The translations under genes were made by a program, and so were the position numbers. The notes below the pieces were generated by a model. It saw only the letters and a list, made by a program, of their open reading frames with translations, was not told the DNA's origin and made no database searches. From the IMG/VR virus record IMGVR_UViG_3300048587_000636, positions 1 through 29,389 of that record: a stretch of DNA of 29,389 nt; one strand, written 5' to 3'. The stretch comes from a virus. Positions within the stretch are counted from its first letter, which is position 1; every line of letters begins with the position of its first letter. This document shows, in pieces, positions 3,829-29,154 of the stretch.

Positions 3829-3831
3829 AGG

Positions 3832-4821: not shown

Positions 4822-4823
4822 AT

Positions 4824-5435: not shown

Positions 5436-5444
5436 AAATGATAG

Positions 5445-6115: not shown

Positions 6116-6118
6116 AGG

Positions 6119-6673: not shown

Positions 6674-6688
6674 GCCCTAAGTATACCA
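6674..6688 (-). promoter_or_regulatory. Leaderless-type extended -10 promoter for the connector gene
   Basis: Minus strand: TGG-TATACT-TAGGGC-ATG. The hexamer occupies 6685-6680 and the ATG is exactly 6 nt downstream, so transcription should start at the start codon. TAGGG could act as a very short Shine-Dalgarno only if transcription began further upstream. Confidence 0.55.
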
Positions 6689-6689
6689 C

Positions 6690-12922: not shown

Positions 12923-12976
12923 AAACTTTGGTTAAATTATAATTGAGCGCCCATTGCAGGGGTGAAGTTATATCGC

Positions 12977-13621
12977 TCACTTCTTGAGTTGTCGGATGGC
13001 CTTGTTCAGCAAGCCAACAGCATTCTGCTTGCGGGTGGCTGATGGGTCTACATCAGTGATGCTGTCCTCGATTTGCGCCTTCACTTCAATGAGTGTATCA
13101 GCGGCGTCAGCAGACTTGATGAGGGCACGGCGGTTCGAGCCAATGCCGACAAGTGAACACTCCATGAGCTCGTTGCTCTTGAGTACGAAGCAATCACGGT
13201 CCTCGTCATAGTCAACAATGTGTGGGATGAAACCGACGGACACCATGTTGAGGTCACCACGCGCGACGTGATCCCACGCGCGACGGATGTCGTCATGCAG
13301 CTCCACCGCAAACTCCGCCTCGCCCATGAGCATCTGCTCGCCAGGACGTTCCGGGTCAGCTTCAAGCCAGACACGCAGCCACTTACCGAGAGGAAACTCA
13401 TTTGAGCGGTGCCCCCAGAAGAAGGCAGGGTTTTTGATGAAGTGCTCAAGCATCCATGAGCTCTGGTCCACCACATCGCCGTGTCGGTCTACTGCAGAGG
13501 TAGACATTACGAACACAGCGGTGTGCTTGTCAGCATTGATAGAAACGCTCTTCTGCGCCACGTCCACGTCGTAGCGCTTTCCCACCATCTCCGCTGCTTT
13601 CTGCTTCATCTCAAGTTTCAT
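12977..13621 (-). CDS. Prohead protease, HK97 (S78) family
   Basis: This 214-residue serine protease cleaves the capsid delta domain and other prohead proteins during maturation. His71 in WGHRSNEFPLGKW and Ser128 in NMVSVGF are at the positions expected for the catalytic pair, and ELMECSLVGIGSNRRAL is the conserved third motif. The N-terminal DRHGDVVDQSSW is also typical. Length is normal for the family. The start is leaderless-like: TATACT lies 6 nt before the ATG. It follows the portal stop by 22 nt. Confidence 0.95.
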   Translation of the reverse strand: MKLEMKQKAAEMVGKRYDVDVAQKSVSINADKHTAVFVMSTSAVDRHGDVVDQSSWMLEHFIKNPAFFWGHRSNEFPLGKWLRVWLEADPERPGEQMLMGEAEFAVELHDDIRRAWDHVARGDLNMVSVGFIPHIVDYDEDRDCFVLKSNELMECSLVGIGSNRRALIKSADAADTLIEVKAQIEDSITDVDPSATRKQNAVGLLNKAIRQLKK

Positions 13622-13636
13622 AAGAGTAGTATATCA
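13622..13636 (-). promoter_or_regulatory. Leaderless-type extended -10 promoter for the protease gene
   Basis: Minus strand: TGA-TATACT-ACTCTT-ATG, with the hexamer at 13633-13628. The spacing of 6 nt places the transcription start at the ATG, and no Shine-Dalgarno is present. Confidence 0.55.
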
Positions 13637-13643
13637 GATGCCG

Positions 13644-15650
13644 TTAAACTGCAGCGCTCAGCACACATCGGCAATTTATTGAATGCTCGCCGGGGTAGTG
13701 CTCACCGTTCGGAAACGCGCCATTCTTCGCGACAATCTTGCCATCGTTCTCCTTGTGCTCCTTGCGCACGTCATCGTCCCCGACGCTGATCCACTCCTTG
13801 CCGGTCACCACGCTGGATTGGTTGTAGGCATCGTTGGTAGCCTTTGAGAGCGCGTAACCCGTCTCGGTGCGAGCGATGGTCATGGAGCGCTTCACGCCCA
13901 TGTCTTTGAAGTAGTCACGCAGGCTGTCTGCAATTTTCGCCACGCCATCACCATTGCCAATACCGGCCACAATCTTGCTCTGCAGCACCTCGTAGGTGGT
14001 ATCCATCATGCTCTCAGTGAAGAACGCTGCGCGGGCCTGCATCGCCGCGATCATCTGCTCATCGGTAAAGAATTGGTCAGTAGACTTGCGGAAAAGGGCA
14101 TCGAGCGCCTCCTGTCCTCCCTTCCGGTAGATGTCCACCACCACCGGGGTGAGGGCATTCTTGGCGGTAATCTTCTCGGCTTGCAGGTCCATGAAGCCGA
14201 CCGGCTGCAAGTCAGTTGCGAGAATACGCTTAAGGAGACCATCGTGGAACTCGTCCACCGCGGCCTTCAACACCTCAGCCTTGCGGTCTGCTTTATCATT
14301 CACCGCTTTGGCGTATGCCTGCTTCATCTCCTTGGTGGCAAAGATGCTGTTCATCGACCGCTTTGGCTGCGTGAGCATCACCAGGTCAACGGTCTTCTCG
14401 ATGGCGTTGAGGCGCTTAGCAAGCCCGTGGCGGCTGCGAATGACCTCCTTAGCCTTAGCCTTCAACTCTGCGGTGTCTTGGCCCGTGGCGGGGCTGTTTT
14501 GGGCCATTGAGAGGGTGTCTGCACCTTCCATAGCCTCGTAGTTGAAAAGGGCACGGCCTTCGTTGGCGGTGATGATGCCTGATTTCTTAAGCTCAGTGGC
14601 TTCTTTGAGGAGCATCTCCCGGTCGAGGGGTGTCGGGTCGGTGAAGTCGAAGAACACCGCAATGTCCATCTGCGGCACCAAGCGGTTGTTGATGACGTCC
14701 ACGAAAGTGGCGAGCGCCGGGATAACCGCCTCCTGCAGGAACATACGGTACGCCTCCTTGGCGTTGGCGAGGTTCACATCGTCACTGGTCACCATTGCTT
14801 TCGGCACGCCAAAGGCTGCGAGGATGTCATCGCGCAAGAAGTGCTGGCTCTGAATGAAGTCCATCTCTTTCGGCGTCTTGTTCAGCTCCTTGACGTCCTT
14901 CACGTTGCCGCCGAAGACACCAAGCTTGCCGCCTTCGTTGCCACCAAAGACACGCTTCCAGTCAGCGCGAGCTTCGTCAGCTGCTTCGGTCGAGACTTCA
15001 CCATCCGCCAAAATGACCACATCTGGTCGGCCTTGGTTTTTGAAGAAGTTGGCCTGGTAGCGAGTAGCCTCCCGCTCCGTGAGGACACGAACGGTGGCCG
15101 GTCGCCCTGCCCCGGTGCCACGTAGCCAGTTGGTCGGGTCGATGTTCTTGATATGCACCACGTCCTCCGGCTTGATGCGCGTGACGGTGGTTGTTTGGTA
15201 CTCATAAGCCACAATGCTGTTGCCGTCGGCATTGAGGATGATCTGCACGTGGTCCGGTCGCAGCGGCATAATGCCGGTGATGGCGGTGCCTGTCCGCTCC
15301 AGGTACCAGAAACAGTCCCCTGCCAGCAGGTAGTGAGCAAGCGACAGCTCGAAGAACTCCCGTTTCGTCATGAAAGGATTGGGGCGGTTGAATAACTGCA
15401 GCAACTGGTGGTCGAGCACTTCTACCACGTCACCACGCTTGTTTTTGATGCGGTACAGCTCCAGGGGCACGCCTGCGCCGCGCTTCGAGATTTTCGATAC
15501 CGCGATGTAGAGGTAAAGGCTATCCTTGTAGTTATTGAGGTTGGCCGTGTCGGAGTAGTGCTCAAAGCCAGCAAACGTATTGCCGTTGGTAATTAGGCTG
15601 ATAGATTTCTGCTTTTGCTTCTTGGAAAACAGCTTTTCGAGGAAACTCAT
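13644..15650 (-). CDS. Portal protein fused to a MuF-like minor head domain
   Basis: The protein is 668 residues from ATG 15650 (a GTG at 15665 would add 5). Residues about 20-400 are an HK97-type portal (for example DSLYLYIAVSKISKRGAGVP, LAHYLLAGDCFWYLER, AAFGVPKAMVTSDDVN), which forms the 12-fold ring for DNA passage. The last 130 residues resemble the Mu F/SPP1 gp7 minor head domain: RSMTIARTETGYALS, RKEHKENDG, NGEHYPGEHSINCRC. In most relatives these are two genes. The ATG at 15650 is chosen because TATAAT stands exactly 6 nt before it. It follows the large terminase stop (15665). Confidence 0.92.
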   Translation of the reverse strand: MSFLEKLFSKKQKQKSISLITNGNTFAGFEHYSDTANLNNYKDSLYLYIAVSKISKRGAGVPLELYRIKNKRGDVVEVLDHQLLQLFNRPNPFMTKREFFELSLAHYLLAGDCFWYLERTGTAITGIMPLRPDHVQIILNADGNSIVAYEYQTTTVTRIKPEDVVHIKNIDPTNWLRGTGAGRPATVRVLTEREATRYQANFFKNQGRPDVVILADGEVSTEAADEARADWKRVFGGNEGGKLGVFGGNVKDVKELNKTPKEMDFIQSQHFLRDDILAAFGVPKAMVTSDDVNLANAKEAYRMFLQEAVIPALATFVDVINNRLVPQMDIAVFFDFTDPTPLDREMLLKEATELKKSGIITANEGRALFNYEAMEGADTLSMAQNSPATGQDTAELKAKAKEVIRSRHGLAKRLNAIEKTVDLVMLTQPKRSMNSIFATKEMKQAYAKAVNDKADRKAEVLKAAVDEFHDGLLKRILATDLQPVGFMDLQAEKITAKNALTPVVVDIYRKGGQEALDALFRKSTDQFFTDEQMIAAMQARAAFFTESMMDTTYEVLQSKIVAGIGNGDGVAKIADSLRDYFKDMGVKRSMTIARTETGYALSKATNDAYNQSSVVTGKEWISVGDDDVRKEHKENDGKIVAKNGAFPNGEHYPGEHSINCRCVLSAAV

Positions 15651-15665
15651 ACTGGAATTATACAC
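15651..15665 (-). promoter_or_regulatory. Leaderless-type -10 promoter for the portal gene
   Basis: Minus strand: GTG-TATAAT-TCCAGT-ATG, with the hexamer at 15662-15657. No Shine-Dalgarno occurs before either the GTG 15665 or the ATG 15650, which favours the leaderless ATG. Confidence 0.5.
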
Positions 15666-16804
15666 TAGGCGAATAGCTTGCCCTGCTTCTTCGCCCCGAT
15701 GCCGTAGCGGATGGCGTCCATGGCATGGTTGTCATAGTCCTGCGCGTTGTTAGTCACCTTCCCCGCCTTATCTGTCAGCCAGAGGTAGTTGCGGTACTCC
15801 TTAAGCAGGTTAGTGGAGCGCTTCGTGACCGACACCTTCTGGTCTTGCAGGAAAGCAATACCCTGAGCGATGCTGCCCGGCCCCTTTGATGCGGCCAAGA
15901 TGTTCGCCCCGTAGCTCTTGATTTCATCAATAGACTTAGGCTCCGCACTGTCCGCGATGATGAGCGCCCGCTCCATGGTCGAAAGAGCGTCAAAGATGGC
16001 CTTGTTGCTCATCCCCTTCTGGTACAGCAGTTCATCAAAGATAAAGCCGCCATTATATTCATAGATCGCGATGGCTGCGGTAGGGTCGTTGGTGTAGCCG
16101 AAGTCGAGGCCGATGCTCTTGAGCCGCGCTTCGTGTGGGATGTCATCCACAAGCTGCCAGCCGGTGTAGATGCGGCCTTCAATCTCACCAAGCTGACCAA
16201 GGCCGTACACCTTCCACCACTGCTCGCGGTTCTTGCGCTGCTCGATAGAGGCTACGGTGCGGGCATCGAGGGCTTCGTTGTCCAGGTAGGTGATGATGAT
16301 GTGGTCCACATCGTCACGCTTGCCCAGCACGTCAGTGTAGAACCAAAACTCCGCCGACGGGTTCCAGTCCATCCACACGCTCTCGGTCGTACGCACCTCC
16401 AGCTGCTCAAAAGCGTCAAAGTCGATGTTGTTGCATTCGTTGAGGTAGAGGCGCTGGCGACGGGCACCACGCAGCTTGTCCGGCTGGTCGGCAGAGAAGA
16501 ACTCGATCTGTGAGCCGGTCTCGAAGGTGTAAATGAAGTCCGACCGGTTCCAGCGGCTGTCATCGTAGTAGCCGTGCTCTTTGAGGATTTTCAGAAAGTC
16601 ACGGATGGCACCACGCTTAAGGTGCGGCAAACTCTCAGACACAACCGAGGTAAGGGTTGGGTGCTCTTTGCTGTCTGACTGCGCCAGGGCAATGAGTACA
16701 AGCAAGATACTGATAGTCTTCGACGCAGAAGTACCACCCTGAATGGCTTTAATGCGCTTCCGTAGCGCTTTAATGCGCCTCGTCGCTGTGGTCTCGATGA
16801 ACAT
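15665..16804 (-). CDS. Terminase large subunit (PBSX/XtmB-like)
   Basis: A 379-residue packaging motor. The ATPase half has a Walker A variant GGTSASKT (23-30) and a Walker B-like LYLNEC (119-124). The nuclease half has an RNase H-like set: Asp234 in GLDFGYTNDP, Asp285 in IIADSAEPKS and Asp363 in NHAMDAIRYG. It pumps phage DNA into the prohead through the portal and cuts it. The length is slightly below the usual 400-450 residues. The gene overlaps the small terminase gene by 35 nt. Confidence 0.94.
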   Translation of the reverse strand: MFIETTATRRIKALRKRIKAIQGGTSASKTISILLVLIALAQSDSKEHPTLTSVVSESLPHLKRGAIRDFLKILKEHGYYDDSRWNRSDFIYTFETGSQIEFFSADQPDKLRGARRQRLYLNECNNIDFDAFEQLEVRTTESVWMDWNPSAEFWFYTDVLGKRDDVDHIIITYLDNEALDARTVASIEQRKNREQWWKVYGLGQLGEIEGRIYTGWQLVDDIPHEARLKSIGLDFGYTNDPTAAIAIYEYNGGFIFDELLYQKGMSNKAIFDALSTMERALIIADSAEPKSIDEIKSYGANILAASKGPGSIAQGIAFLQDQKVSVTKRSTNLLKEYRNYLWLTDKAGKVTNNAQDYDNHAMDAIRYGIGAKKQGKLFA

Positions 16805-17231
16805 TGATGATTGGTTGCGGCAACGGTTTGTCGTCCGTTGTCACGTCGGTCTTCTCCTTCATCCCGTGGTTGGCCGATAGGACGAGCTTGGTGATGAGGG
16901 GATTGTAGTAGCCGGAAAGACCGCCTTTGATGAGCATTTGCCGTTGCTTTTGGTCCAAAAGCTCTAATGCGACGGAAAAAGGTTTATGTTCCTTGCGCCA
17001 CTCTTGAATAGTGTCGCGGTGCACATGCAGCTCTAGTGCCAAACCCTCCACCGTTGGCAGCCCGGCCTCAACAAGCCGCTCGAATGACTCACCTGTGGCG
17101 CTGTAGGACTTTGTGAAGGTAGAGAAGCGATCTTCCGCACCATCTACATACTTCAAAGTAGCTGCGAGGATGTCCTCAGAGTACTTTGTCGGCCTCCCTG
17201 CTTTCTTCGCCGCTGCCTTTGCTTTCGCCAT
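16770..17231 (-). CDS. Terminase small subunit
   Basis: A 153-residue DNA-binding protein just upstream of the large terminase and overlapping it. The basic N-terminus (AKAAAKKAGRPTKYSED) is followed by an HTH-like part (LPTVEGLALELHVHRDTIQEW) and the GGLSGYYNPLITKLVLSANHG stretch seen in small terminases. It would recognise the packaging site and load the large subunit. TATAAT precedes the ATG by 7 nt. Confidence 0.88.
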   Translation of the reverse strand: MAKAKAAAKKAGRPTKYSEDILAATLKYVDGAEDRFSTFTKSYSATGESFERLVEAGLPTVEGLALELHVHRDTIQEWRKEHKPFSVALELLDQKQRQMLIKGGLSGYYNPLITKLVLSANHGMKEKTDVTTDDKPLPQPIINVHRDHSDEAH

Positions 17232-19097: not shown

Positions 19098-19817
19098 TCA
19101 GTTGAGGCGCACGCACACACCGTCGATGATGTCGTGCAGGTCCTTCGTCGCCTTGGGGTTCTCCGTGACCTTGCCGGTGAGGGCAAAGGTGGTGGCATTG
19201 AACAGCCGCCAGGCCGTCCGCTGCTCCCCCCAGTCAAACTGAGGCTTCTCGTAGGCGTCGAGCACTTCCCCGATGCGCGTCACGTTGATGACGTCACGCC
19301 GGTACATCTGCATGATGGCATGGTCAGCCAACAGATCATCGAGCAGCGAAGCTTTGTACCGCTCGAAGGTGTCGAACTGCCGCTTCCGCTGGATGCCCAG
19401 AGGTTCGATGACCTCTGCCACCAGCCCCGGCAGATCGCGCTTGGCGTTCGGCGTGTGGCGCCGCTTGATGACGTGCTCACCCAGGAAAGCGAGGTTGTCG
19501 CAGGTAAAGACACGAGAACCGATGGCGATACCGATCGGGAACTTCTTGTCGTGGCTGTTCCGCAAGCCGACCATATCCGTATAGTCGCCGTACGGAGATT
19601 TCAGCACCAGCACCCCGAAGAAACGGGCACCATCCGGCGTGACGCCGTAGTGTTCTTCCACCAGGTCGTGGCCGAAGAAGCCAAGGCTGTACTTCACCAT
19701 ATCCACCACGCTGTGGTGAGGAATTGGCACGTGTGACATGGTGGCGTCAGGGGTGACGAGTGCGCGCAGGCCAGCATAGTCCGTGGCCTCCGCTCCGGCA
19801 TGAAGCATGAGGGTCAT
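19098..19817 (-). CDS. DUF932 family phage/plasmid-like protein
   Basis: This 239-residue protein resembles the DUF932 group found in many phages and plasmids: ATMSHVPIPHHSVVDMVKYSL, GVLVLKSPYGDYTDMVGLRNSHDK and GSRVFTCDNLAFLGEHV are the family's recognisable stretches. The biochemical role is unknown; it is usually encoded near replication genes. GGAGA lies 8 nt before the ATG. A TATAAT (19858-19853) stands 35 nt upstream. The gene ends at a strong terminator, so it can be a single transcript. Confidence 0.85.
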   Translation of the reverse strand: MTLMLHAGAEATDYAGLRALVTPDATMSHVPIPHHSVVDMVKYSLGFFGHDLVEEHYGVTPDGARFFGVLVLKSPYGDYTDMVGLRNSHDKKFPIGIAIGSRVFTCDNLAFLGEHVIKRRHTPNAKRDLPGLVAEVIEPLGIQRKRQFDTFERYKASLLDDLLADHAIMQMYRRDVINVTRIGEVLDAYEKPQFDWGEQRTAWRLFNATTFALTGKVTENPKATKDLHDIIDGVCVRLN

Positions 19818-20177: not shown

Positions 20178-20726
20178 TTAGAACTTCCACGACGGGGGCA
20201 GCTGGCACTCAGTGACCCCCACATATCCTGCCAGTTTTCCATTCGCCAACCGCACCGGAATGGCAACTTTTCCTCGCAGGATACCCCGTGGGGCGTAGCC
20301 GATACCGAGACGGTCAGCATCGCCGGGCTCAAAGCCAAGGGCGATAACTGCTTCATGGTCGGCTACAAGGTAGTCCAGGGGCTTAAAGCCATCACTCGGC
20401 TCTCCCCCGTTGTCTTTCTCCTTGGAACGGTTCCCCTTGCTGGGGTTGTCCTGTTTCGGCGGTCCAGACAGCCATGCGGCTGCTTCTTTGACGCCAAGCC
20501 CTTTCACGTGGGACACCAGTTGCAGTTGGTCCCCACCCTTCCCCAGCGTGAAGCAGAAGAAGACGTTTTTGTCAGGTGTGATGACGAGGTTGCGGTCTCC
20601 CGAGCTCTCGCAGACCGGACACTTTCCACGAAGTGACGCGCCACTCTTGTTGAGATTTAGGCCAAGCTTCTCCGCCACCTCCCCGATGGGGTTTGCTGCT
20701 TTAATCTCCTCGAAGTTAAGGAACAT
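20178..20726 (-). CDS. CHC2 zinc-finger primase-like protein without TOPRIM
   Basis: This 182-residue protein starts like a DnaG-type zinc-binding domain: MFLNFEEIKAANPIGEVAEK, then RGKCPVC (Cys36, Cys39) and VFFCFTLGKGGD (Cys58). The fourth ligand of classical CHC2 fingers (CFGCG) is replaced by Leu61. Residues about 125-170 (YAPRGILRGKVAIPVRLANG) resemble the start of the DnaG catalytic part, but the TOPRIM domain is absent. It may prime with a host partner or bind template. A Shine-Dalgarno GGAGG lies 6 nt before ATG, and TATACT is at 20763-20758. Confidence 0.82.
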   Translation of the reverse strand: MFLNFEEIKAANPIGEVAEKLGLNLNKSGASLRGKCPVCESSGDRNLVITPDKNVFFCFTLGKGGDQLQLVSHVKGLGVKEAAAWLSGPPKQDNPSKGNRSKEKDNGGEPSDGFKPLDYLVADHEAVIALGFEPGDADRLGIGYAPRGILRGKVAIPVRLANGKLAGYVGVTECQLPPSWKF

Positions 20727-21052: not shown

Positions 21053-21082
21053 CCCCCTGCCTACGCGGTAGGGGGTTCCTTT
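21053..21082. terminator. Bidirectional terminator between convergent genes
   Basis: A 9-bp stem CCCCCTGCC/GGTAGGGGG (21053-21061 and 21067-21075) followed on the plus strand by TTCCTTT. It ends the 72-aa gene and overlaps the last codons of the replication-relaxation gene read the other way. Confidence 0.82.
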
Positions 21083-22032
21083 ATGCTAACTGGTGGCAAG
21101 CCACCGCGTAGCCACTCGCCAGTGAAGAGCTCAGGATTTGGCTTTGGTGACGTATAGGAACGCTCCTGCACGGCTTGATAGGCGAACAGGAAGTGAGGGC
21201 CTTGGCCGAACAGCTGTGCTGAGATTTCAGCGGCATGCTGCACGCGAGACTTGAGCGGGTAAAGAAAGAGCACGTCAAAGCCCTTCTTGCCTAACTGGCG
21301 AATTGCGCCGGTCTTTCGCACGTCGCTGTACGCCAGCATCTTCCGCATCGAAGAGGAGTCATTGATTTGGGTCCGTGAAACAGGGGACTGGTGCTCAGCT
21401 TCAAGGAGGTAGAGGCGTGAACGGCCATCCGGGTACCGGATTGCGAAAATGGCATCGGGGATGATGGTTGTCTTCACGCGGTCGGTGCCACCATCTGGGC
21501 GACGGAAGACGACAGTGCATGGCAGACGCAGCGCCTTAGCATCCCCTACCCGCTTGATGATTTCAGTGTGGGGGATGAGTGAGCAGCCAGATTGCACCGC
21601 GCCAATTTCGATGGAAGCCAGCGCATCGCATATCATCATCGAATGCTTGAAGGTACGCGCGGGCATTTCAGCTCGCACCCGGCGAAGGTTGGTCGCCTCG
21701 GGCGTCTTTTCGCCCAGGAGCCGGAAGCCGGTATCGGTGATTTCATAGATGTCGCTATCATTCCACGACCGATAGCGGCGTGTCTCGTCACCCACCTCTT
21801 GCTGCCCCGGCTTGGCGACGTAGCCATGGTCGAGTAGCTTCCGCAGGCTGTAGTTGACGGTGCTACGGCCCCACGGTTTCGACAACTCCTGCAGGAAAGT
21901 GCCGCGCAGGTAGCGGTAGCGGGCCAGGTACGACAGAACCAAGCCGTCCACCGGTCGATACTTCCACGGCTTCTTTGCAGCCTCGGGGTCGCGCCGCATC
22001 CTTTTGCGGCGCGGTTTTTCCTCCTTTTTCAT
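21061..22032 (-). CDS. Replication-relaxation family protein
   Basis: A 323-residue protein matching the replication-relaxation (Replic_Relax) group of plasmid and conjugative-element proteins. A lysine-rich N-terminus precedes a winged-helix part: PVDGLVLSYLARYRYLRGTF, then VNYSLRKLLDHGYV and DIYEITDTGFRLL. RTFKHSMMICDALASIE starts the second domain, in which PDAIFAIRYPDGRSRLYLLE resembles a nuclease-like or regulatory core. Such proteins are linked with plasmid replication or mobilisation, not proven in general. TACAAT lies 6 nt before ATG. It is the last gene of the ATPase module. Confidence 0.8.
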   Translation of the reverse strand: MKKEEKPRRKRMRRDPEAAKKPWKYRPVDGLVLSYLARYRYLRGTFLQELSKPWGRSTVNYSLRKLLDHGYVAKPGQQEVGDETRRYRSWNDSDIYEITDTGFRLLGEKTPEATNLRRVRAEMPARTFKHSMMICDALASIEIGAVQSGCSLIPHTEIIKRVGDAKALRLPCTVVFRRPDGGTDRVKTTIIPDAIFAIRYPDGRSRLYLLEAEHQSPVSRTQINDSSSMRKMLAYSDVRKTGAIRQLGKKGFDVLFLYPLKSRVQHAAEISAQLFGQGPHFLFAYQAVQERSYTSPKPNPELFTGEWLRGGLPPVSIKEPPTA

Positions 22033-22047
22033 AGCTTTATTGTATCA
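22033..22047 (-). promoter_or_regulatory. Leaderless-type extended -10 promoter for the replication-relaxation gene
   Basis: Minus strand: TGA-TACAAT-AAAGCT-ATG, hexamer 22044-22039. It overlaps the end of the upstream gene (stop 22037), so the gene may be transcribed alone as well as in the operon. Confidence 0.5.
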
Positions 22048-22438
22048 TCTTGCAGACGAAGTAGTTGCCGTACGTCGGGTCGAAGGTCCAGCTATCGTGC
22101 TGGAGTGCCTCTTCCCTTAGCACTGCTACCATGCGGCCCAGGTACTCCTCTGTGCCAGCCTTGAGGTACTTGAGAGTGGCTTTCGGCTCGTCGCGAGAAT
22201 TGAAGCTGTGGATGTGGAGGATGCTCTCCTCTTCATCGAGCCAAGGCGCGATGCGGGGATAGTCCGACATCTTCGAGATGAAGGAATACTCGCTCTGCCC
22301 CTTGTACTTTCCCATGAGGGGCTTAGCCCAAGTGCGCTCTGAGACCATCGCCACCTTGAAAGCGTTGATGACTACGATGGACTGCCCGACGCAGTAGATG
22401 AAAAAAGTGTCGCCCGAAGAGTGGGGGTGGATAGACAC
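22037..22438 (-). CDS. Small protein, 133 aa, unknown
   Basis: The start is GTG 22438, supported by AGGAGG 7-9 nt upstream. The sequence MSIHPHSSGDTFFIYCVGQS, then YSFISKMSDYPRIAPW and a glutamate-rich middle, ends in WTFDPTYGNYFVCKMIQ. No family, signal peptide or membrane helix is seen. It sits within the module that ends with the replication-relaxation gene. The Shine-Dalgarno lies in a hairpin stem. Confidence 0.65.
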   Translation of the reverse strand: MSIHPHSSGDTFFIYCVGQSIVVINAFKVAMVSERTWAKPLMGKYKGQSEYSFISKMSDYPRIAPWLDEEESILHIHSFNSRDEPKATLKYLKAGTEEYLGRMVAVLREEALQHDSWTFDPTYGNYFVCKMIQ

Positions 22439-22443
22439 GATGA

Positions 22444-22467
22444 AAACCTCCTGATGGCTGGAGGTTT
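22444..22467 (-). promoter_or_regulatory. Hairpin containing the Shine-Dalgarno of the 133-aa gene
   Basis: AAACCTCC (22444-22451) and GGAGGTTT (22460-22467) form an 8-bp stem. On the minus-strand mRNA the GGAGG ribosome site is in one arm, paired with CCTCC. The stem is also followed by TTTTC, so it may act as a terminator. Confidence 0.55.
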
Positions 22468-22548
22468 CCGATTATTCACACATTCTGCTGCCTGTAACGC
22501 TACAGCATGGTTACGATGGCTGCAGTGGTTGCAATGAGACAGCGAGAG

Positions 22549-22716
22549 TCAAACATCAAGTTTTACTTCATTGTTGTTGCGGCGCTTTTCCCAACCCTTC
22601 TTGGCATTCTCACGCGCGGCCTTAGTGCGCGCCTCACTCTTAACAGAAGCGAGCATACTTGCCGGATTAATCTCACCGTGACAGTGCGGACAACGGAACA
22701 CCCTATCCGATTTCAT
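22549..22716 (-). CDS. Small zinc-ribbon-like protein, 55 aa
   Basis: Starts at ATG 22716 inside the end of the upstream gene (stop 22703) and ends at TGA 22551-22549. It reads MKSDRVFRCPHCHGEINPAS, then a basic tail (KAARENAKKGWEKRRN). The CPHC motif with GEINPASML resembles a common class of small single-knuckle proteins in phages and plasmids. Only one Cys pair is present, so metal binding would need His12 or dimerisation. It may bind nucleic acid. Confidence 0.68.
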   Translation of the reverse strand: MKSDRVFRCPHCHGEINPASMLASVKSEARTKAARENAKKGWEKRRNNNEVKLDV

Positions 22717-22981
22717 AGGCAGAAACAGCTGCTAGTAATTTTTGCAGTTGGTCGATTGTGTCAGAATGCTCATCAAGTTCACCGCTCTCGTACTTCGGCA
22801 AGGTCGATAATTCACTCAAAAGCTCACGCAACCACTCAACCTTGCAGTGCAAGACTTCTGACACCTTCCAGTAGCCTCCATTAGCCGAGCTATTACGTAC
22901 ACCATCAACCTCATCCACCTCCCAATTATCCCAACAGAACTCACTTCCAATGGCCTCAAGAGCAATAGTGATTTTTTCCAT
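22703..22981 (-). CDS. Small acidic protein, 92 aa, unknown
   Basis: Begins MEKITIALEAIGSEFCWDNW and continues VDEVDGVRNSSANGGYW; it ends with a helix (TIDQLQKLLAAVSAYEIG). The protein is strongly acidic and no family is recognised. Its start lies 10-15 nt after a pair of competing hairpins. It overlaps the next gene by 14 nt, suggesting coupling. Confidence 0.62.
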   Translation of the reverse strand: MEKITIALEAIGSEFCWDNWEVDEVDGVRNSSANGGYWKVSEVLHCKVEWLRELLSELSTLPKYESGELDEHSDTIDQLQKLLAAVSAYEIG

Positions 22982-22988
22982 AGTTACT

Positions 22989-23020
22989 GACCCCGAAGGG
23001 TTCGGGGCTTAAGCCCCGGA
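22989..23020 (-). promoter_or_regulatory. Two mutually exclusive hairpins before the 92-aa gene
   Basis: On the minus strand GGGGCTTAAGCCCC and CCCCGAACCCTTCGGGG share the same central CCCC, so only one can fold at a time. They lie between the stop of the 42-aa gene and the 92-aa gene start. The arrangement is that of an attenuator or a translational switch, but no ligand site or T-run is evident. Confidence 0.45.
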
Positions 23021-23021
23021 A

Positions 23022-23150
23022 TTAGATGATAATACATGCGACAACTATCGCCGCGAGAGAGACGCCAACATAAGGCAGCATCTTCCTTATCTGTGCGATA
23101 CGGTAGTATCTGCGCCCTCGCCGACGCATTTCAACTTCAAATTCGTTCAT
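23022..23150 (-). CDS. Small single-span membrane peptide, 42 aa
   Basis: ATG 23150 to TAA 23024-23022. An acidic then very basic N-terminus (MNEFEVEMRRRGRRYYRIAQ) precedes one hydrophobic helix (MLPYVGVSLAAIVVACIII) that ends the protein. The positive charges suggest the N-terminus stays in the cytoplasm. It is the first gene after the palindrome-controlled promoter, with no clear Shine-Dalgarno. The function is unknown. Confidence 0.58.
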   Translation of the reverse strand: MNEFEVEMRRRGRRYYRIAQIRKMLPYVGVSLAAIVVACIII

Positions 23151-23176
23151 ATTTATACGCTACTATTAATGATTAG

Positions 23177-23205
23177 ATTATATGCCAGCGCTGGCATAAA
23201 TGCAA
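23177..23205 (-). promoter_or_regulatory. Sigma70-type promoter with an 18-bp palindromic operator in the spacer
   Basis: Minus strand: TTGCAT (23205-23200), 17 nt, TATAAT (23182-23177). The spacer and half of the -10 hold the perfect palindrome TATGCCAGCGCTGGCATA (23181-23198). A dimeric repressor bound there would block polymerase. It drives the small genes and perhaps the replication-relaxation gene. Confidence 0.78.
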
Positions 23206-23241
23206 GTGATGGCAACACTCAGAAACACATTAGAATAAGAG

Positions 23242-25248
23242 TCAATAAAGCTCTGGACTGTCATCAACTGGCGAAGGAGGTGTGGTTGCTGGCGGCGCGA
23301 CACCGGCAGAGGTAAGGTCACGGCAGTACAGCTCATGCAGCTCGGCGCGGAAAGCTTCCATCTCGCGGCTGCTTGTCGGTCTGAACTCACTGCCGTCAAT
23401 CGGCGCAGCTTGCCAAGGCAGTGTCCCAATTCCATCAAAGCGCGCCAGGAAATTACGGCGTTTGATGCCCCTCACTGCTTCCGTCGAAGTGTCGAGGAAC
23501 CGCGCCACCACCGGCACATCCTCGACGCTTGCCACACCCATAATCTTGATGGCAGTGGTCCCGGCAAGAGCACTCTGCAGCGAGCGGCTGAGCTGGCCCA
23601 TGTACTGGTGCGCGAGCACCAACCCAACGCAGTACTTCCTTGCGGTCGTCAGCAGGTCCTTCACGTTCTCATCGAGATATTCATACGCCTCGTCAATGTA
23701 GAGGAAGGTGGGCTGGCGGTTCGTATCGAGCGCACGCTCCTGCATCGACTGCAACGCCATAGCAATGAATAGGCGACCAAAGAGCTTATGCCCGCGCTGA
23801 CCAAGGAGTGACTTCGCGGTGTTGACGCAGATGATGCGGCCCGGCTTCGCCATTTCCTCGTGCATCTTGAACTTGCTCTTTTCGGCCAAGAACATCTGCG
23901 CGAGGACTTGGTTATTCAGAAGCCCCATGATGCGGCGTGACACTTCCCCCTTGGTCGTCTTGTACTCTGTATTAAAATCGTTGCTAAAGAACACCCGCGC
24001 TGGCTCGTCCAGCTTCTCCACATAGGAAAGGTAGTCCGTCAGGCCACCAGGACGACAGACCTCGGCCATCGTGAGGAAGTTTGCACCAGGCACTGAAAGC
24101 AAGAGCTGCGTGAGGTAGACAAATAGACTGCTTTGCTTTTCGGTCATCTCGTCCATGAAGGAACTGAACACGAAGCTGAACAGGTTTTCGACCGATGCCT
24201 TCGCCTGCATCCTCATCTGTGGTGAGTAGTCAGCAAAGCGCTCCTGTCCGATGTCAAACATATTGAGCGCCACCGGGTACTCGACGTCATTCGGGTCCAC
24301 TACCACCAGCCTGTCTTTCGGCGCGATGGCGGTAATTTCTCGTATTAAGTCTTCCTGCCCGTCAATGACAATGACGGTATTGCCAATCTTGATGTCTTCA
24401 AAAATCATAGATTTCAGCAGGTGAGTCTTACCAGAGCCGGGCATCCCCATGATGTGCGTATGCGAGAACCGCAGCTCCTGCGGTACGCCAAACGGGACCG
24501 ATAGCGAAAAAAGAGCTTCAAGTGGTGTGCCGGATAGGTAAGCATCAACCACATCATCACCCTTGTACTTGGTCGGCAGTACGCCCTTCTGCTTCTCCAC
24601 ATTTTCTTCCAGCGTCCGCTGCAAATCACCAAATGCCTCGTCATCGAAAAAGTGCAGCGTCAGCTCTTCTATGAGCGCCGGGAGGTTTGGTATGAAAGAA
24701 GAAATAGGAACGCGAGACGGACCTGCATTCGGGGTGTACTGCACCACCATGCCGATGGCGGCGGCGATGTGTTCAACCAGCTCGCGGACCCGCTCCGGGG
24801 ACCGCGTGGATATTTTCGCCAACCTATCTAGGTAGCGAGCTCCTTCAATACTATCCGCCACCGCTGGGGGCTTCGGGACAGTGCTCGAAACATCGAGTTG
24901 CTTAATGATGCCCTTGCCGATGTGCACGAGCTCCCGCTCGACATCTGTACCGAGGAGGGTGCCTGGAACCTCATACGCCAGCAGCCGCTCTATTACATCA
25001 TCACCGAGACCACCAACAGTGCCTGCAAGTGTCTTCTCATACGCAAGGCCCAAGTGAGCTGCGGCCACGTTCTCTTTTCGCGATGGGTTATCACGCCAGA
25101 ATACAAATCCCGCATACCCCACGCCTGCCGGAATGGCTGCCATGAGTATATAGGGGGTAAGTGTCAGGGCGTAGCTAAGACCATAAAGAGCAGCGAAGCC
25201 GACAACTAACCAGGTGCAGACAGCAATGAGGCCGTCAAAGTCATTCAT
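23242..25248 (-). CDS. TraD/VirD4-like membrane-anchored ATPase
   Basis: A 668-residue protein. Two N-terminal membrane helices (about 8-28 and 32-50) anchor it to the inner membrane. A helical part follows (about 60-260), then Walker A GMPGSGKT (268-275), DGQED at 297-300, Walker B FLYIDEA (515-521) and LAHQYMGQL (545-552). This is the plan of type IV coupling proteins and of HerA/VirB4-like pumps. The C-terminus is proline-rich. It may pump DNA at the membrane. Its stop is 37 nt before the operator-controlled promoter of the following genes. Confidence 0.88.
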   Translation of the reverse strand: MNDFDGLIAVCTWLVVGFAALYGLSYALTLTPYILMAAIPAGVGYAGFVFWRDNPSRKENVAAAHLGLAYEKTLAGTVGGLGDDVIERLLAYEVPGTLLGTDVERELVHIGKGIIKQLDVSSTVPKPPAVADSIEGARYLDRLAKISTRSPERVRELVEHIAAAIGMVVQYTPNAGPSRVPISSFIPNLPALIEELTLHFFDDEAFGDLQRTLEENVEKQKGVLPTKYKGDDVVDAYLSGTPLEALFSLSVPFGVPQELRFSHTHIMGMPGSGKTHLLKSMIFEDIKIGNTVIVIDGQEDLIREITAIAPKDRLVVVDPNDVEYPVALNMFDIGQERFADYSPQMRMQAKASVENLFSFVFSSFMDEMTEKQSSLFVYLTQLLLSVPGANFLTMAEVCRPGGLTDYLSYVEKLDEPARVFFSNDFNTEYKTTKGEVSRRIMGLLNNQVLAQMFLAEKSKFKMHEEMAKPGRIICVNTAKSLLGQRGHKLFGRLFIAMALQSMQERALDTNRQPTFLYIDEAYEYLDENVKDLLTTARKYCVGLVLAHQYMGQLSRSLQSALAGTTAIKIMGVASVEDVPVVARFLDTSTEAVRGIKRRNFLARFDGIGTLPWQAAPIDGSEFRPTSSREMEAFRAELHELYCRDLTSAGVAPPATTPPSPVDDSPELY

Positions 25249-25613
25249 AGCTCAAAGGACTTGCTGGTGCCTGTCGATGCGTTCTCCATGATGTGTGCCT
25301 TCAACACCTGCAGACGCTGGACCAACTCCCCCTCATAACTCTTCGCCTCAAGCGGTGTTGCCACCACGTAGGTATCCTCCCCACGCTTTGCCAACTTGCC
25401 GATAGTAAGGTCAAAGATGTTCAGGTTGTCGCCGGGCTTCACTTTCACATCAGCGGGCGGGTTCCGCTCCATGATGATGTCTTTTTCAAGCTTCCGCTGT
25501 TGAATGATGGCGCGCTCTTCGTTGCTGAACTCCACCTTCAACTTGACGTGAAAGTACTTCGTCTTAAAGATCAGTCCTTCGGTCTTTTCGCTATGCTCTA
25601 TGGAAACACGCAT
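25245..25613 (-). CDS. Small protein between the two ATPases, about 122 aa, unknown
   Basis: ATG 25613 is preferred because GGAGG lies 5 nt upstream; GTG 25616 is possible. The sequence opens MRVSIEHSEKTEGLIFKTKY and has a lysine/glutamate-rich helix (NEERAIIQQRKLEKDIIMER) and a final helix. No membrane segment or signal. It overlaps the TraD-like gene by 4 nt, so the two are probably translated together, and the protein may be a partner of the ATPases. Confidence 0.7.
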   Translation of the reverse strand: MRVSIEHSEKTEGLIFKTKYFHVKLKVEFSNEERAIIQQRKLEKDIIMERNPPADVKVKPGDNLNIFDLTIGKLAKRGEDTYVVATPLEAKSYEGELVQRLQVLKAHIMENASTGTSKSFEL

Positions 25614-25664
25614 CACGTCCTCCGTACAATGTCACTCCAGTAGACGTTGACGTTAGGAAAGCTG

Positions 25665-26816
25665 TCAAGAAAATTGCTGCAACTGCTTTGCTGCATCGCC
25701 CAAAAAAGAGGCACAGTAGTTTCGCCGTAGGTTGGCATCTATCTGCCGAGCACTGGCTTCGTACTGCTGAAAAGAAAGCGGAGCTGTCGTTACGAGCTGC
25801 GGTTTATGGTGGCCGAACACCCATGCCTGATAGGGCTCCAGCTCATACGGCTGCAGCTCCTGGTCACCGAGCTCAGGGAAGGACCGGCTGTCCTCAAACG
25901 ACAATCTGAAAACATACTGGGTACTATTCGCTTTCACGCTTGCGAGGAGGAGCGGGTGCAGTTGCGCGAGGTACTGGTGGACCGTGGTCAGCTGCACATT
26001 GTACTTGCGGATACCGGACAGCATCTCAGCGATGGTGTACGGGGCGAAGGTGTGCACTTCGTCAATGAAGAGCTGGAAGGGGAGAGCCGTGTCCCGGCGC
26101 AGGCACGCTTGGTGTATCTGGACCAAGAGCAAGGAACCGATGAGCGCAGCTTTCTGCACCCCAATTTCTCCTTGGGATAGTCGGATGAAAAGTACCTTGT
26201 CCTTTACATAGTCATCAATACGAAATCCGCTTTTGCGACCAGCGATGGCTCTGATGCGACTATCAGCCATGAGTGCCTGTACCTTGTTCAAAGTACTGTC
26301 CGACTGCTCCAGCTGCTGCTTTTCATTCAAGCTGTCAAACCACTGCCAGTACCGCTTTACTACAGGGTCCTTAATCGCCTCCAGAACGTGCCTTCGGTAC
26401 TGAGATGATGAAAGTATCAAGTACAAGCCAAAGAGCCCCTCATGGGCCTCCATAAGCGCCACAAGGGCATTGTATAAGACACCATCCATGCGCGGTGTCG
26501 GCGTCCGGTCATATTGCCAGGCAGCTTTGATGCTATCAGCGAAGACTGACGCTGTAAGCGGCGGGTTGTCGGTGTCGAGTGGGTTCCACGGGATGGTGTA
26601 GTGCGCCGGGTCGAACACCATGACGTCCTTCCGTCGTCTGGCGGGGATGTAGTGGAGGAGCTCATCAGTATCGTGGCCGTGAGGGTCGATGTAGCAAACA
26701 GCGTGACCATCATGAACAGCAGCAAGGAGCCACTCCTTGGCAAGTGTCGATTTACCGGTACCGGACTGCCCAATGATGTGGTGGTGCGCCATAACGGCAC
26801 CGCGCCAGTCCCCCAC
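25665..26816 (-). CDS. TraG/VirD4-like ATPase, first of two
   Basis: The 383-residue frame from GTG 26816 has Walker A GQSGTGKST (16-24) almost at its N-terminus, Walker B FQLFIDEVH (247-255), and TVHQYLAQL (278-286), as in TraG/VirD4 coupling ATPases. The all-alpha domain seems to lie between 110 and 200. The frame is open upstream to the TAA at 26892-26894 and the upstream codons look coding (VPLRYRR), but they hold no ATG, GTG or TTG; CTG 26891 is the only other option. No membrane segment is visible. The true N-terminus is uncertain. Confidence 0.85.
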   Translation of the reverse strand: MGDWRGAVMAHHHIIGQSGTGKSTLAKEWLLAAVHDGHAVCYIDPHGHDTDELLHYIPARRRKDVMVFDPAHYTIPWNPLDTDNPPLTASVFADSIKAAWQYDRTPTPRMDGVLYNALVALMEAHEGLFGLYLILSSSQYRRHVLEAIKDPVVKRYWQWFDSLNEKQQLEQSDSTLNKVQALMADSRIRAIAGRKSGFRIDDYVKDKVLFIRLSQGEIGVQKAALIGSLLLVQIHQACLRRDTALPFQLFIDEVHTFAPYTIAEMLSGIRKYNVQLTTVHQYLAQLHPLLLASVKANSTQYVFRLSFEDSRSFPELGDQELQPYELEPYQAWVFGHHKPQLVTTAPLSFQQYEASARQIDANLRRNYCASFLGDAAKQLQQFS

Positions 26817-26894
26817 CAGTGCCGTGTGTCGTGCGGTTGATGATGAAGTGCGGCGGTACCGTAATGGAACAGTCCATAAGTATTTTATCAGTTA

Positions 26895-27148
26895 TCAGTG
26901 TGTTGTGGTCCGCTCACTGGTTCGTCCGACCGCTAGGGCGTGACCCAATCCCTTTAACGACGCACGTAAGGCTGTGCCGCGTGGGGAGTGGGCGCTATAG
27001 CGCAAAGGGATTGGGTCACGCCGTTAGGCGGGCGGGCAGTGATGCGGAATAAGTTGATATGAAACCGCTTTCAGCGGAATGGCTCACGGGGGCATATAGC
27101 TACCCGTGAGCAACTAGCAAACAAGCGACAGCGCGCCAGTTTTGGCCG
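26895..27148. other. Gene-free region dense in inverted repeats, candidate origin or transfer site
   Basis: No credible ORF. It holds a 19-bp perfect inverted repeat GGCGTGACCCAATCCCTTT (26937-26955 and 27004-27022) with a 48-nt loop, the palindrome GCGCTATAGCGC (26992-27003) against its right arm, CCGCT/AGCGG (27065-27077) and GCTCACGGG/CCCGTGAGC (27082-27090 and 27103-27111). It separates control genes from the ATPase module. Such clusters mark replication origins, oriT or recombination sites; which one is not shown. Confidence 0.55.
26937..27022. repeat. 19-bp perfect inverted repeat, 48-nt loop
   Basis: Arms 26937-26955 and 27004-27022 are perfect. The loop holds GTGGGGAGTGGG and the 12-bp palindrome GCGCTATAGCGC next to the right arm. 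As RNA the arms would form a very stable long hairpin. Confidence 0.85.
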
Positions 27149-27526
27149 TTAGGCCGCGCGGTACAGGCCGTCAGTGGCGGTCACCAGACCCTTCTTTTTC
27201 AGGTTCGACAAGGCATTGCTGATGCTCTGCTGTGTCGATTTGTCATGTGCGTTCATCTGGCTGATGACAGCACCACGGCTGAGGCCGGTCGGTGATTTCT
27301 TGATGAGGTCCAGTACCTCCTCCGCCACACCGGTGCGCCGGGTACGGGTGGTGGTAGCGTGCTCACCTACGTCATCACTCTCGACGAGGCGGTAGTGGAA
27401 ACCGAGATTGTTTAGGTCAGCCACAGCCTTCTCGGCTGCAGCCAGTGCTTCTTTCTTGGCTTGGCCCATGAGAGCCTGCTTCTGCGCCTCAAGTTGCATG
27501 ATCTGGTCGATGATGGAAGTGGACAT
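27149..27526 (-). CDS. Coiled-coil/winged-helix regulator, 125 aa
   Basis: The start is ATG 27526, with GGAGGG 5 nt upstream; a longer frame to 27589 is less likely. Residues 1-45 form a helix (IDQIMQLEAQKQALMGQAKK) like the N-terminal oligomerisation part of H-NS/MvaT-type proteins. Residues about 65-125 look like a winged helix: VAEEVLDLIKKSPTGLSRGA, then STQQSISNALSNLKKKGLV. It is probably a DNA-binding control protein, possibly the repressor of the module. It faces the inverted-repeat region. Confidence 0.68.
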   Translation of the reverse strand: MSTSIIDQIMQLEAQKQALMGQAKKEALAAAEKAVADLNNLGFHYRLVESDDVGEHATTTRTRRTGVAEEVLDLIKKSPTGLSRGAVISQMNAHDKSTQQSISNALSNLKKKGLVTATDGLYRAA

Positions 27527-27625
27527 AATGCCCTCCAAAAGTAAACGATGAAACAATGTATAGTGAAAATGTAAATGACACAAGTACAAATGAAAGGGGC
27601 GGGGTTGGAACCCGCCCCACCCCCG

Positions 27626-27823
27626 TTAGGGAGTCTCACGCTTGGCAAGCTGCGTGGCAATCCAGGCGTCGATTTCACCTTCCGAAAACAGTACCTTGAA
27701 ACCGACACGGGCGGGCTCTGGGAACCCCACGTGTGCGTATTCCTCACAGAACCGAAACCGGTTGATGTGGGCTCGACTGAACCCGACCTTCTCGCAGACT
27801 TGTTTCATCGTCAGTAGCTTCAT
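27626..27823 (-). CDS. AlpA-type HTH protein (excisionase/regulator)
   Basis: A 65-residue protein from ATG 27823 with GGGAGA about 7 nt upstream (TTG 27829 is an alternative). LLTMKQVCEKVGFSRAHINR and GFPEPARVGFKVLFSEGEID are the helix-turn-helix and wing of AlpA/MerR-like excisionases. Such proteins bend DNA at attachment sites and direct the integrase toward excision, or activate transcription. Its place near the integrase fits this. Confidence 0.88.
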   Translation of the reverse strand: MKLLTMKQVCEKVGFSRAHINRFRFCEEYAHVGFPEPARVGFKVLFSEGEIDAWIATQLAKRETP

Positions 27824-27883
27824 CGCCAATCTCCCGAAGGAGACTCGCGAGCCTCGGTTTATGCCTCGGCAGCTAAGAAGGTA

Positions 27884-28071: not shown

Positions 28072-29115
28072 TCACTCCATCAAAGAAACTAAGTACGTCT
28101 CATAAATCTGCGCCGCGACTTTCATTTCATCAAGGTATTTGTGCTGATTATATACGGACACGACGCCGCCAAACGTGCCACTCACGTGGTTCACCAGCTT
28201 CTCTGCCACATGAAGAGGCGTTCCGATGGCCGCATGGTGCGTGACAAAGGTGCGCCGTAGGTCGTGCAGTGTGTACCCGGTGACACCGGTTGCCTTGTCC
28301 ATACGTGCCTTAGCTTTGCTCCAGCCCTGATAGCGGAATGGTGCAGCTGCCAGCAGCTCCTTTGCCACTGCCCCAATGGGAAAGGTGTGAGGCCGTCCAT
28401 TCTTAGTAACTGATGCCGGAAGGTTGACCACGTCATCACCCACCCACTCAGGCTGAATAGCAGTGATTTCACCACGCCTCTGGCCGGTGAGCAGCATGAT
28501 CTTCACCACATCGGTGAAGGGACGGTCTTCGTACTGCCAGATGGTCTTTATCTCTTCTGCAGAGAGGGCGCGCGTCCGTGGCTGCGGGGATATAGTTAGT
28601 TTCATCCCCTCGATGGGCGAACGGTCGATGTGACCGATGCTCACACACCAATTAAAGTAAGTGCGGATCGTCAGGAATGCGTGACGGTACTCACCTGGCC
28701 GATCTGACAGCTCAAGGAACTTCTCCGCCAGCCTCTCGCGGGTAGGTTTCGCCGGGAGGTGCAGCCGCAGGTGGCGCTCGTAGTCTCTTACCGTTCGGTC
28801 TCGGTTATGCTTACGGCAGTGCGCGAGGAAGTCTTCCACATAGCCACCTAGAGCCGCAGACGCCTCGTCAGGTGTAAGAACCACCTCCCCTGCCCCAAGG
28901 ATCACGTGCGCTTCTTTGCGCGCCTCCTTGAGGCTCTTGTCGGGATAGCGGCCAAGCGTCTTGAGCTGCCGCTTGTGACCGTACATGACAACGAAGCTTT
29001 TGCTGCCGCCTTGCGACACGCGGACACCAAAGCCCGGCAGTGCTTCATCAAAGTAAGTTTTCTGTCCCGTGGCAGGAATCGGTAGCGCACGGATACCTAT
29101 GTCCGTCAGTCGCAT
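28072..29115 (-). CDS. int: Tyrosine recombinase integrase
   Basis: A site-specific recombinase that integrates and excises the element at tRNA-Pro. ATG 29115 gives 347 residues and the usual opening MRLTDIGIRALPIP; an ATG at 29145 adds 10 unusual residues. The N-terminal part (YFDEALPGFGVRVSQGGSKS) is the DUF4102-like arm-binding domain, then a SAM-like domain. The catalytic set appears: Arg in LLTGQRRGEI, Lys in TKNGRPHTF, HDLRRTF, and a C-terminal VNHVSGTFGG with VSVYNQH as nucleophile Tyr. The attachment site lies directly upstream of the gene. Confidence 0.95.
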   Translation of the reverse strand: MRLTDIGIRALPIPATGQKTYFDEALPGFGVRVSQGGSKSFVVMYGHKRQLKTLGRYPDKSLKEARKEAHVILGAGEVVLTPDEASAALGGYVEDFLAHCRKHNRDRTVRDYERHLRLHLPAKPTRERLAEKFLELSDRPGEYRHAFLTIRTYFNWCVSIGHIDRSPIEGMKLTISPQPRTRALSAEEIKTIWQYEDRPFTDVVKIMLLTGQRRGEITAIQPEWVGDDVVNLPASVTKNGRPHTFPIGAVAKELLAAAPFRYQGWSKAKARMDKATGVTGYTLHDLRRTFVTHHAAIGTPLHVAEKLVNHVSGTFGGVVSVYNQHKYLDEMKVAAQIYETYLVSLME

Positions 29116-29154
29116 CGCTAGTCTCACTAGTCGCGCAAATCGCATGTGCTGGGG

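What the first reader, a model, noticed from the sequence alone, without database searches (positions are those of the whole stretch)
21061..27149. A conjugation-like module inside a phage genome
Two coupling-protein-type ATPases (Walker A GQSGTGKST and GMPGSGKT; both with a Walker B and an LAHQY/TVHQY motif), one with two membrane helices, are encoded with a replication-relaxation family protein and several small proteins in an element that also encodes terminase, portal and capsid. No relaxase, VirB4 or channel genes are seen. The set may act in replication, partition or cell-to-cell transfer of the prophage, or it may be a captured plasmid part. Proof of transfer function cannot come from sequence alone.
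Basis: partly seen in the sequence, partly recalled or inferred. Interest (0 to 1): 0.75.

Follow-up and report, generated by a model that had tools for sequence, protein, structure and literature searches.

The report
Phages carrying a plasmid mobilization module
A temperate tailed phage, together with a family of related phages, carries what looks like a complete plasmid-style kit for being handed from cell to cell by conjugation (a DNA-nicking relaxase, a coupling motor and a matching transfer origin), so it may travel both as a virus and, with a helper's channel, as mobilized DNA.

Summary
The 'replication-relaxation' gene (21061-22032) is a diverged MOBC-type relaxase: relatives match PF13814 like CloDF13 MobC, catalytic residues are shared, and the order T4CP-relaxase is the same. 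ATPase 1 (23242-25248) is a VirD4/TrwB-type coupling protein. It also missed a 141-bp nested inverted repeat (26909-27049) before the ATPase operon. The same hairpin lies at the same place in 14 other elements; its inner arm GACC-N(3-4)-CCCTTT recurs before the coupling gene of three MOBC plasmids, and the pooled sites also find CloDF13's oriT. It is very probably an oriT. Relaxase + coupling protein + oriT is a complete mobilization module, without mating-pore genes. It is the conserved early region (Int-AlpA-oriT-ATPases-relaxase-CHC2-DUF932) of at least 15 viral contigs with several unrelated virion cassettes, and of a full-looking prophage in an isolate genome. Best reading: temperate phages with an integrative-mobilizable-element backbone, mobilizable in trans and possibly replicating from the same nick. 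Transfer, nicking and replication are not shown. Novelty: new variant of a known kind.

The parts
26909..27049 (-). Candidate oriT: nested double inverted repeat. Inner arms 27004-27022 / 26937-26955 (perfect 19 nt); outer arm TTCCGCATCACTG.. near 27049 pairs with ..CAGTGAGCGGA near 26909. By analogy with CloDF13 the nick would lie about 27014/27015 on the + strand (inferred)
   Evidence: only perfect arm >=12 nt in the window; shuffles at most 13; DNA fold z -7.7
25665..26816 (-). ATPase 2 (ATP2), 383 aa, soluble, coupling-protein/VirB4-like motor; role unknown
25245..25616 (-). 123-aa partner overlapping the start of ATPase 1; the same gene precedes the T4CP in Rhodobacterales elements
   Evidence: (36% identity, 4e-24)
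23242..25248 (-). ATPase 1 (ATP1), 668 aa, T4CP-like coupling protein with N-terminal membrane helix region
22037..23150 (-). Small ORFs between ATP1 and relaxase (42, 92, 55 and 133 aa), no clear family (133 aa: sub-threshold S-AdoMet lyase match)
21061..22032 (-). Replic_Relax / MOBC-type relaxase, 323 aa: winged HTH + PD-(D/E)XK-like domain; H130, P192-D193, E211, E213, Y235
20178..20726 (-). CHC2 zinc-finger primase fragment, 182 aa, part of the conserved early block
19098..19817 (-). DUF932-like protein, part of the conserved early block
27149..27589 (-). Small DNA-binding regulator (wHTH-like C-terminus); ATG start near 27527 likely
27626..27829 (-). AlpA-type regulator/excisionase
28072..29145 (-). 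Tyrosine integrase (Arm-DNA-bind_3 + Phage_integrase)
11624..17231 (-). Packaging and head genes: small terminase, large terminase, portal (with Mu-F domain), S78 protease, HK97-type capsid
92..9620 (-). Connector and tail genes incl. tail tube, tape measure, baseplate/hub-like

Best explanation
21061-27049 is a mobilization (MOB) module of the MOBC type that forms the early region of a temperate tailed phage. Proposed mechanism: after excision, the winged-HTH/PD-(D/E)XK relaxase (21061-22032) binds the nested hairpin (26909-27049) and nicks one strand at the GG/GTC core of the inner arm. ATPase 1, anchored in the inner membrane, acts as the coupling protein that takes the nicked strand to the mating channel of a helper conjugative element, as MobB and MobC do for CloDF13. 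CHC2 primase and, in relatives, an ArdC antirestriction protein suit entry of single strands into a recipient. The same nick could also start rolling-circle replication of the excised genome. Shown here by sequence: homology of relaxase and coupling protein, intact active sites, an oriT-like site, conserved order, and co-residence with virion genes in several phages. Inferred: nicking, docking to a helper T4SS, transfer, and any replication role.
For: Relaxase: PF13814 matches CloDF13-type MobC over the whole profile (8e-22) and 26/32 relatives of the window protein. PF13814 = MOBC superfamily (PMC5357655); MOBC is related to PD-(D/E)XK nucleases (PMC12857230). H130, D193 and E211 are invariant in 32 relatives and in 5 MobC proteins; P192, E/D213 and Y235 nearly so. 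Model pLDDT 90, wHTH followed by an alpha-beta-beta-beta-alpha-beta core. Coupling protein: profile match to the T4CPs of five MOBC plasmids, 2e-10; fold search top hits TrwB, then Cag-beta, DotL, VirB4, HerA. Gene order T4CP then relaxase in CloDF13-type and four other MOBC plasmids and in 46 of 60 elements. oriT: nested hairpin in front of the operon in 11 elements, then in L116, L117, L135 and L137. Own arms 89% complementary versus 49% swapped, 0/20000 permutations. Arm GACC-N3/4-CCCTTT on both strands in the window (expected 0.08) and upstream of the T4CP in MOBC plasmids L103, L105 (expected 0.03), L106. The pooled sites place CloDF13's own oriT first of 6570 windows, z 5.75. A DNA-only pattern scan found two new long nested hairpins, both followed by T4CP and relaxase. 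Virion genes.
Against: The window relaxase alone does not pass PF13814; direct profile comparison with MobC is weak (score 29.8, P 0.002; column-shuffled controls up to 20.4). The CloDF13 first rank depends on four sites (L077, L093, L096, L097); without them, or with window-like sites alone, it is lost. No hairpin was found upstream in L115, L118-L122. No T4SS genes were seen in these phages, and VirB4 (PF03135) was found in only 2 of 6 host genomes, not in the isolate LSUCC0112. No transfer data exist. No PDB structure matches the relaxase model with confidence.
Confidence: 0.68

Rival explanations
1. The module is the phage's replication system: the relaxase nicks the hairpin as a double-strand origin and starts rolling-circle replication; the ATPases unwind or position DNA at the membrane; CHC2 helps prime. 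Cell-to-cell transfer plays no part.
For: No other initiator, replicative helicase or polymerase was recognised in the early region of the window or of the relatives examined. CHC2 primase is a constant neighbour. ICE relaxases are known to drive replication (established knowledge of ICEBs1). The module is kept across unrelated virion cassettes, as an essential function would be.
Against: A membrane-anchored TrwB-type coupling protein has no known replication role and is the most constant partner. The site resembles transfer origins of MOBC plasmids. Plasmids such as Sulfitobacter unnamed1 have repAB and still keep the cassette.
Confidence: 0.2
2. HerA-like motor plus nuclease: a defence or DNA-repair system (HerA-NurA or SIR2/DUF4297-HerA type).
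For: DUF87 and PADLOC mads_8 matches of both ATPases; HerA among fold hits; the partner has a nuclease-like fold.
Against: TrwB and other T4CPs rank above HerA by sequence profile and by fold; the partner is a Replic_Relax protein with wHTH, not NurA, SIR2 or DUF4297; the conserved hairpin has no place in such systems.
Confidence: 0.04
3. Plasmid-prophage maintenance (partition/segregation), as proposed for Replic_Relax + FtsK-like genes in Bacillus phages.
For: PMC9658697 reads a similar gene pair that way; partition or ParA-like genes lie near the ATPase in phages D6E and Mwe-JY31.
Against: The phage carries an integrase and AlpA; no ParA, ParM or TubZ match among scanned window ORFs.
Confidence: 0.04
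4. A dead or recently captured plasmid fragment with no function.
For: The relaxase is diverged beyond Pfam's cut-off.
Against: Walker motifs and relaxase residues are intact in nearly all members, arms co-vary, order is conserved across many contigs.
Confidence: 0.04

Closest known systems
CloDF13 MOBC1 mobilization region (oriT, MobB coupling protein, MobC relaxase)
   Same: Order oriT-T4CP-relaxase, own coupling protein without mating pore, PF13814 relaxase with the same catalytic residues, nested inverted repeat with outer arm, 5-nt spacer and inner arm with a GACC/GGTC core
   Different: Small non-viral multicopy plasmid; here an integrating phage with a second ATPase, AlpA and CHC2 primase; protein identity is low and the window's own hairpin does not single out CloDF13's oriT
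MOBC conjugative plasmids (e.g. pR11-698-3, MOBC/MPF_T; L103-L106)
   Same: T4CP gene directly before mobC; in three of four a hairpin with arm GACC-N3/4-CCCTTT upstream of the T4CP
   Different: Some encode or sit on elements with their own mating pore; no virion genes seen in the stretches read
Integrative and mobilizable elements (IMEs)
   Same: Integrase + relaxase + oriT (+ T4CP), no mating pore; a close element without virion genes in the stretch seen is Roseovarius tolerans L077, with the same early genes beside a type I R-M system
   Different: Here the cargo is a tailed-phage virion module
P1-like phage-plasmids with mob/oriT (PMC10879196)
   Same: Phage-derived element with conjugative mobilization signals
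   Different: There mob/oriT occur mainly in plasmids that lost phage function and in only two P1-like phage-plasmids; here integrating phages keep virion genes and the module is the standard early region
Bacillus siphophages Novomoskovsk/Bolokhovo (PMC9658697)
   Same: Replic_Relax plus FtsK-type ATPase genes in phages
   Different: Read there as plasmid maintenance; no oriT described in the passages read

Membership tests
MOBC relaxase (PF13814 Replic_Relax) | Profile match to PF13814 | tested here: met
   Not by the window protein alone; 26 of 32 aligned relatives match, nearest phage L094 9.5e-7 over the full profile
MOBC relaxase (PF13814 Replic_Relax) | N-terminal winged HTH and PD-(D/E)XK-type catalytic residues | tested here: met
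   (MarR-type wHTH hits; weak hits to XisH, YaeQ, nickase); H130, D193, E211 invariant and shared with MobC
MOBC relaxase (PF13814 Replic_Relax) | Site-specific nicking at oriT | not testable with these tools
   needs protein
Type IV coupling protein (VirD4/TrwB) | RecA-type motor closest to T4CPs, with helical insertion | tested here: met
   helical insertion 343-467 in the model
Type IV coupling protein (VirD4/TrwB) | N-terminal transmembrane domain | tested here: inconclusive
   one clear hydrophobic segment 3-28; second weaker
Type IV coupling protein (VirD4/TrwB) | Docks relaxosome to a T4SS | not testable with these tools
   -
Mobilizable element (MOB+, no MPF) | oriT near the relaxase operon | tested here: met
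   nested hairpin at 26909-27049, conserved and covarying; inner arm shared with MOBC plasmid sites. Function not shown; the CloDF13 match depends on relatives
Mobilizable element (MOB+, no MPF) | No mating-pore genes; integrase present | tested here: met
   the record is a fragment
Mobilizable element (MOB+, no MPF) | Transfer by a helper T4SS | not testable with these tools
   needs mating assay
Conjugative element (ICE/conjugative plasmid) | VirB4 and mating-pair-formation genes | tested here: not met
   none among scanned window ORFs
Temperate tailed phage | Terminase, portal, capsid, tail, integrase | tested here: met
Temperate tailed phage | Makes infectious particles | not testable with these tools
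HerA-based defence or HerA-NurA | HerA as nearest relative with NurA, SIR2 or DUF4297 partner | tested here: not met
   partner is Replic_Relax

The most novel reading that the evidence does not exclude
A widespread class of temperate tailed phages is built on an integrative-mobilizable-element backbone: one relaxosome at an oriT serves both as the phage replication origin and as the start of conjugative mobilization, so the same genome can leave its host either in a capsid or through another element's conjugation channel, and the backbone has repeatedly swapped virion cassettes.
Probability: 0.3. Interest if true: 0.93.

Novelty: new variant of a known kind. Interest (0 to 1): 0.78.

Why it matters
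Phages and mobilizable elements are classed by how they move, and mobilization genes are considered rare in phages (only two P1-like phage-plasmids had mob or oriT in PMC10879196). A phage lineage with relaxase, coupling protein and oriT as its standard early region would break that division, could widen host range beyond receptor limits, and offers one defined locus where relaxase-driven phage replication and prophage mobilization can both be tested. It also gives an oriT-site signature with which MOB modules in prophages and metagenomes can be sought.

Tried and rejected
Direct BLAST of the window relaxase to plasmids gave nothing useful. A single-sequence profile comparison with MobC was weak, so alignments, motif columns and controls were used. 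An ungapped PSSM of the hairpin 5' half did not find CloDF13's oriT, because the arm differs by one base in length; local alignment did. Ablation showed that this CloDF13 result rests on four of the sites. MAFFT could not align the whole hairpins, so arms were compared in anchored register. A tight pattern scan of viral contigs with the window-type arm found nothing; the looser scan gave 28 hits, of which only the two with long nested arms lie by a module and the rest look like chance. VirB4 co-occurrence in hosts was uninformative. The old CloDF13 record is poorly annotated, so a modern CloDF13-type plasmid was used for MobB and MobC. Rfam: no match. Defence and partition readings were considered and set aside, see rivals.
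Full report
OBSERVATION. The window is a whole IMG/VR record of 29,389 bases, a linear fragment. Nearly all genes lie on the - strand. From the right: tyrosine integrase, AlpA, a small HTH protein, a 330-bp gap, ATPase 2, a 123-aa protein, ATPase 1, small ORFs, a 323-aa protein, a CHC2 zinc-finger protein, a DUF932-like protein, then terminase, portal (with a Mu-F domain), protease, capsid, connector, tail tube, tape measure and hub-like genes. The two ATPases are paralogues (23% identity over the motor).

THE 323-AA PROTEIN IS A MOBC-TYPE RELAXASE. Alone it matches no Pfam family. In Sulfitobacter plasmid NZ_CP081110 a 119-aa protein, a 699-aa coupling-type ATPase and a PF13814 protein lie in the same order and are homologous to the window's 123-aa protein, ATPase 1 and 323-aa protein. 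An alignment of 32 relatives has 26 members matching PF13814. PF13814 is the domain of the MOBC relaxases (PMC5357655; CloDF13-type MobC matches it at 8e-22). MOBC relaxases are PD-(D/E)XK-related, with a winged HTH in the prototype TraX (PMC12857230), and CloDF13 belongs to the MOBC1 group of mobilizable plasmids that bring their own coupling protein (PMC7431656). The residues H130, P192-D193, E211-x-E/D213 and Y235 are kept, and they align with those of MobC. The model (pLDDT 90) is a winged HTH followed by an alpha-beta-beta-beta-alpha-beta core with D193 and E211 at the expected strands. Foldseek found only weak hits, but of the expected sorts: MarR-type wHTH, XisH, YaeQ, a nicking endonuclease.

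ATPASE 1 IS A COUPLING PROTEIN. Its family profile matches the T4CPs of MOBC plasmids (2e-10), DotL and TrwB in the PDB, and its model finds TrwB first, ahead of Cag-beta, DotL, VirB4 and HerA. In CloDF13-type and four other MOBC plasmids the T4CP gene directly precedes mobC, the order seen here and in 46 of 60 related elements. ATPase 2 is a soluble relative of unknown role.

A TRANSFER ORIGIN. The gap before ATPase 2 holds the only perfect inverted repeat with arms of 12 nt or more in the window (19 nt, spacer limit 150). Read with its surroundings it is a nested pair of inverted repeats, 26909-27049, that folds far better than shuffles (z -7.7). The same nested hairpin stands in front of the ATPase operon in ten other elements, and later in L116, L117, L135 and L137. 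Arms differ strongly in sequence but each pairs with its own partner: 89% against 49% when swapped, 0 of 20,000 permutations; only GAC is invariant in the eleven. It resembles MOBC origins in two ways. First, arm GACC-N3/4-CCCTTT occurs on both arms in the window (expected 0.08 matches) and on both arms of a hairpin upstream of the T4CP in MOBC plasmids L103, L105 and L106. Second, an unbiased scan of CloDF13 with the eleven sites puts its oriT region first of 6570 windows (z 5.75), with the same layout and, in L077, 14 identical bases (GTCAGGCTCACGCC). The nick string GGGTGGTCGGG, which I recall for CloDF13 and which is not taken from a paper read here, lies there. This second result depends on four sites. 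A DNA-only pattern scan then found two further long nested hairpins, in contigs not seen before; both are followed by T4CP and relaxase, while the 26 short-arm hits show no such genes in the stretches fetched.

IT BELONGS TO PHAGES. Int-AlpA-(site)-ATPases-relaxase-CHC2-DUF932, whole or in large part, recurs in L092-L097, L115-L122, L128 and others. The block is joined to virion genes like the window's (L094, L117/L129, L128), to a different terminase with distant portals (L068, L093), to a terminase phrog_675 / portal phrog_156 set (L096), and to others (L092, L095). In the isolate LSUCC0112 the block is followed by terminase, portal, protease, capsid, tail tube, tape measure and hub, which makes a metagenome chimera unlikely. 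Two relatives carry ArdC antirestriction genes, usual in conjugative leading regions (general knowledge). In Roseovarius tolerans (L077) the same block is followed by a type I R-M system within the stretch seen.

MECHANISM. Relaxase binds and nicks the hairpin; ATPase 1 brings the complex to a helper's T4SS; the strand is transferred and re-closed; integrase re-inserts it. Rolling-circle replication from the same nick is a serious second function or rival, since no other replication gene was recognised. Shown: homologies, active sites, site conservation, order, company. Not shown: nicking, transfer, replication, particles. No mating-pore gene was seen, so self-transfer is not proposed; a helper marker (VirB4) was found in 2 of 6 host genomes.

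VERDICT. New variant of a known kind: MOBC mobilization joined to temperate tailed phages as their standard early region.

Noticed in passing
window 13644-15665: Portal protein is fused to a C-terminal Mu-F-like minor head domain (Phage_portal + Phage_Mu_F).
   Followed up: no
window 22037-22438: 133-aa protein has a sub-threshold match to S-adenosylmethionine lyase (PF23780, 0.0024), a possible antirestriction enzyme.
   Followed up: no
L045-L089 (genome loci): A subfamily of ~850-950-aa coupling-type ATPases never has the relaxase beside it in the loci seen but often has a ~400-aa ATPase 2 relative nearby.
   Followed up: partly
L003/L006, plasmid pRS11DPr5 of Methylomagnum ishizawai: A replication-relaxation gene and the coupling-type ATPase lie on either side of a transposase gene, on a plasmid that also has CHC2 and a multiubiquitin/ThiF locus.
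   Followed up: no
L104, plasmid pZPK-H98 (IncY): An IncY (P1-type replicon) E. coli plasmid typed MOBC and MPF_T carries T4CP-mobC, another possible phage-plasmid/conjugation mix.
   Followed up: no
L094 13802-14659 and L112 7617-8477: ArdC-type antirestriction proteins in two related phages.
   Followed up: partly
L069 7848-7896: Additional short perfect inverted repeats near the candidate oriT.
   Followed up: no
L077 9248-15053: Type I restriction-modification genes follow the same early block in Roseovarius tolerans.
   Followed up: partly
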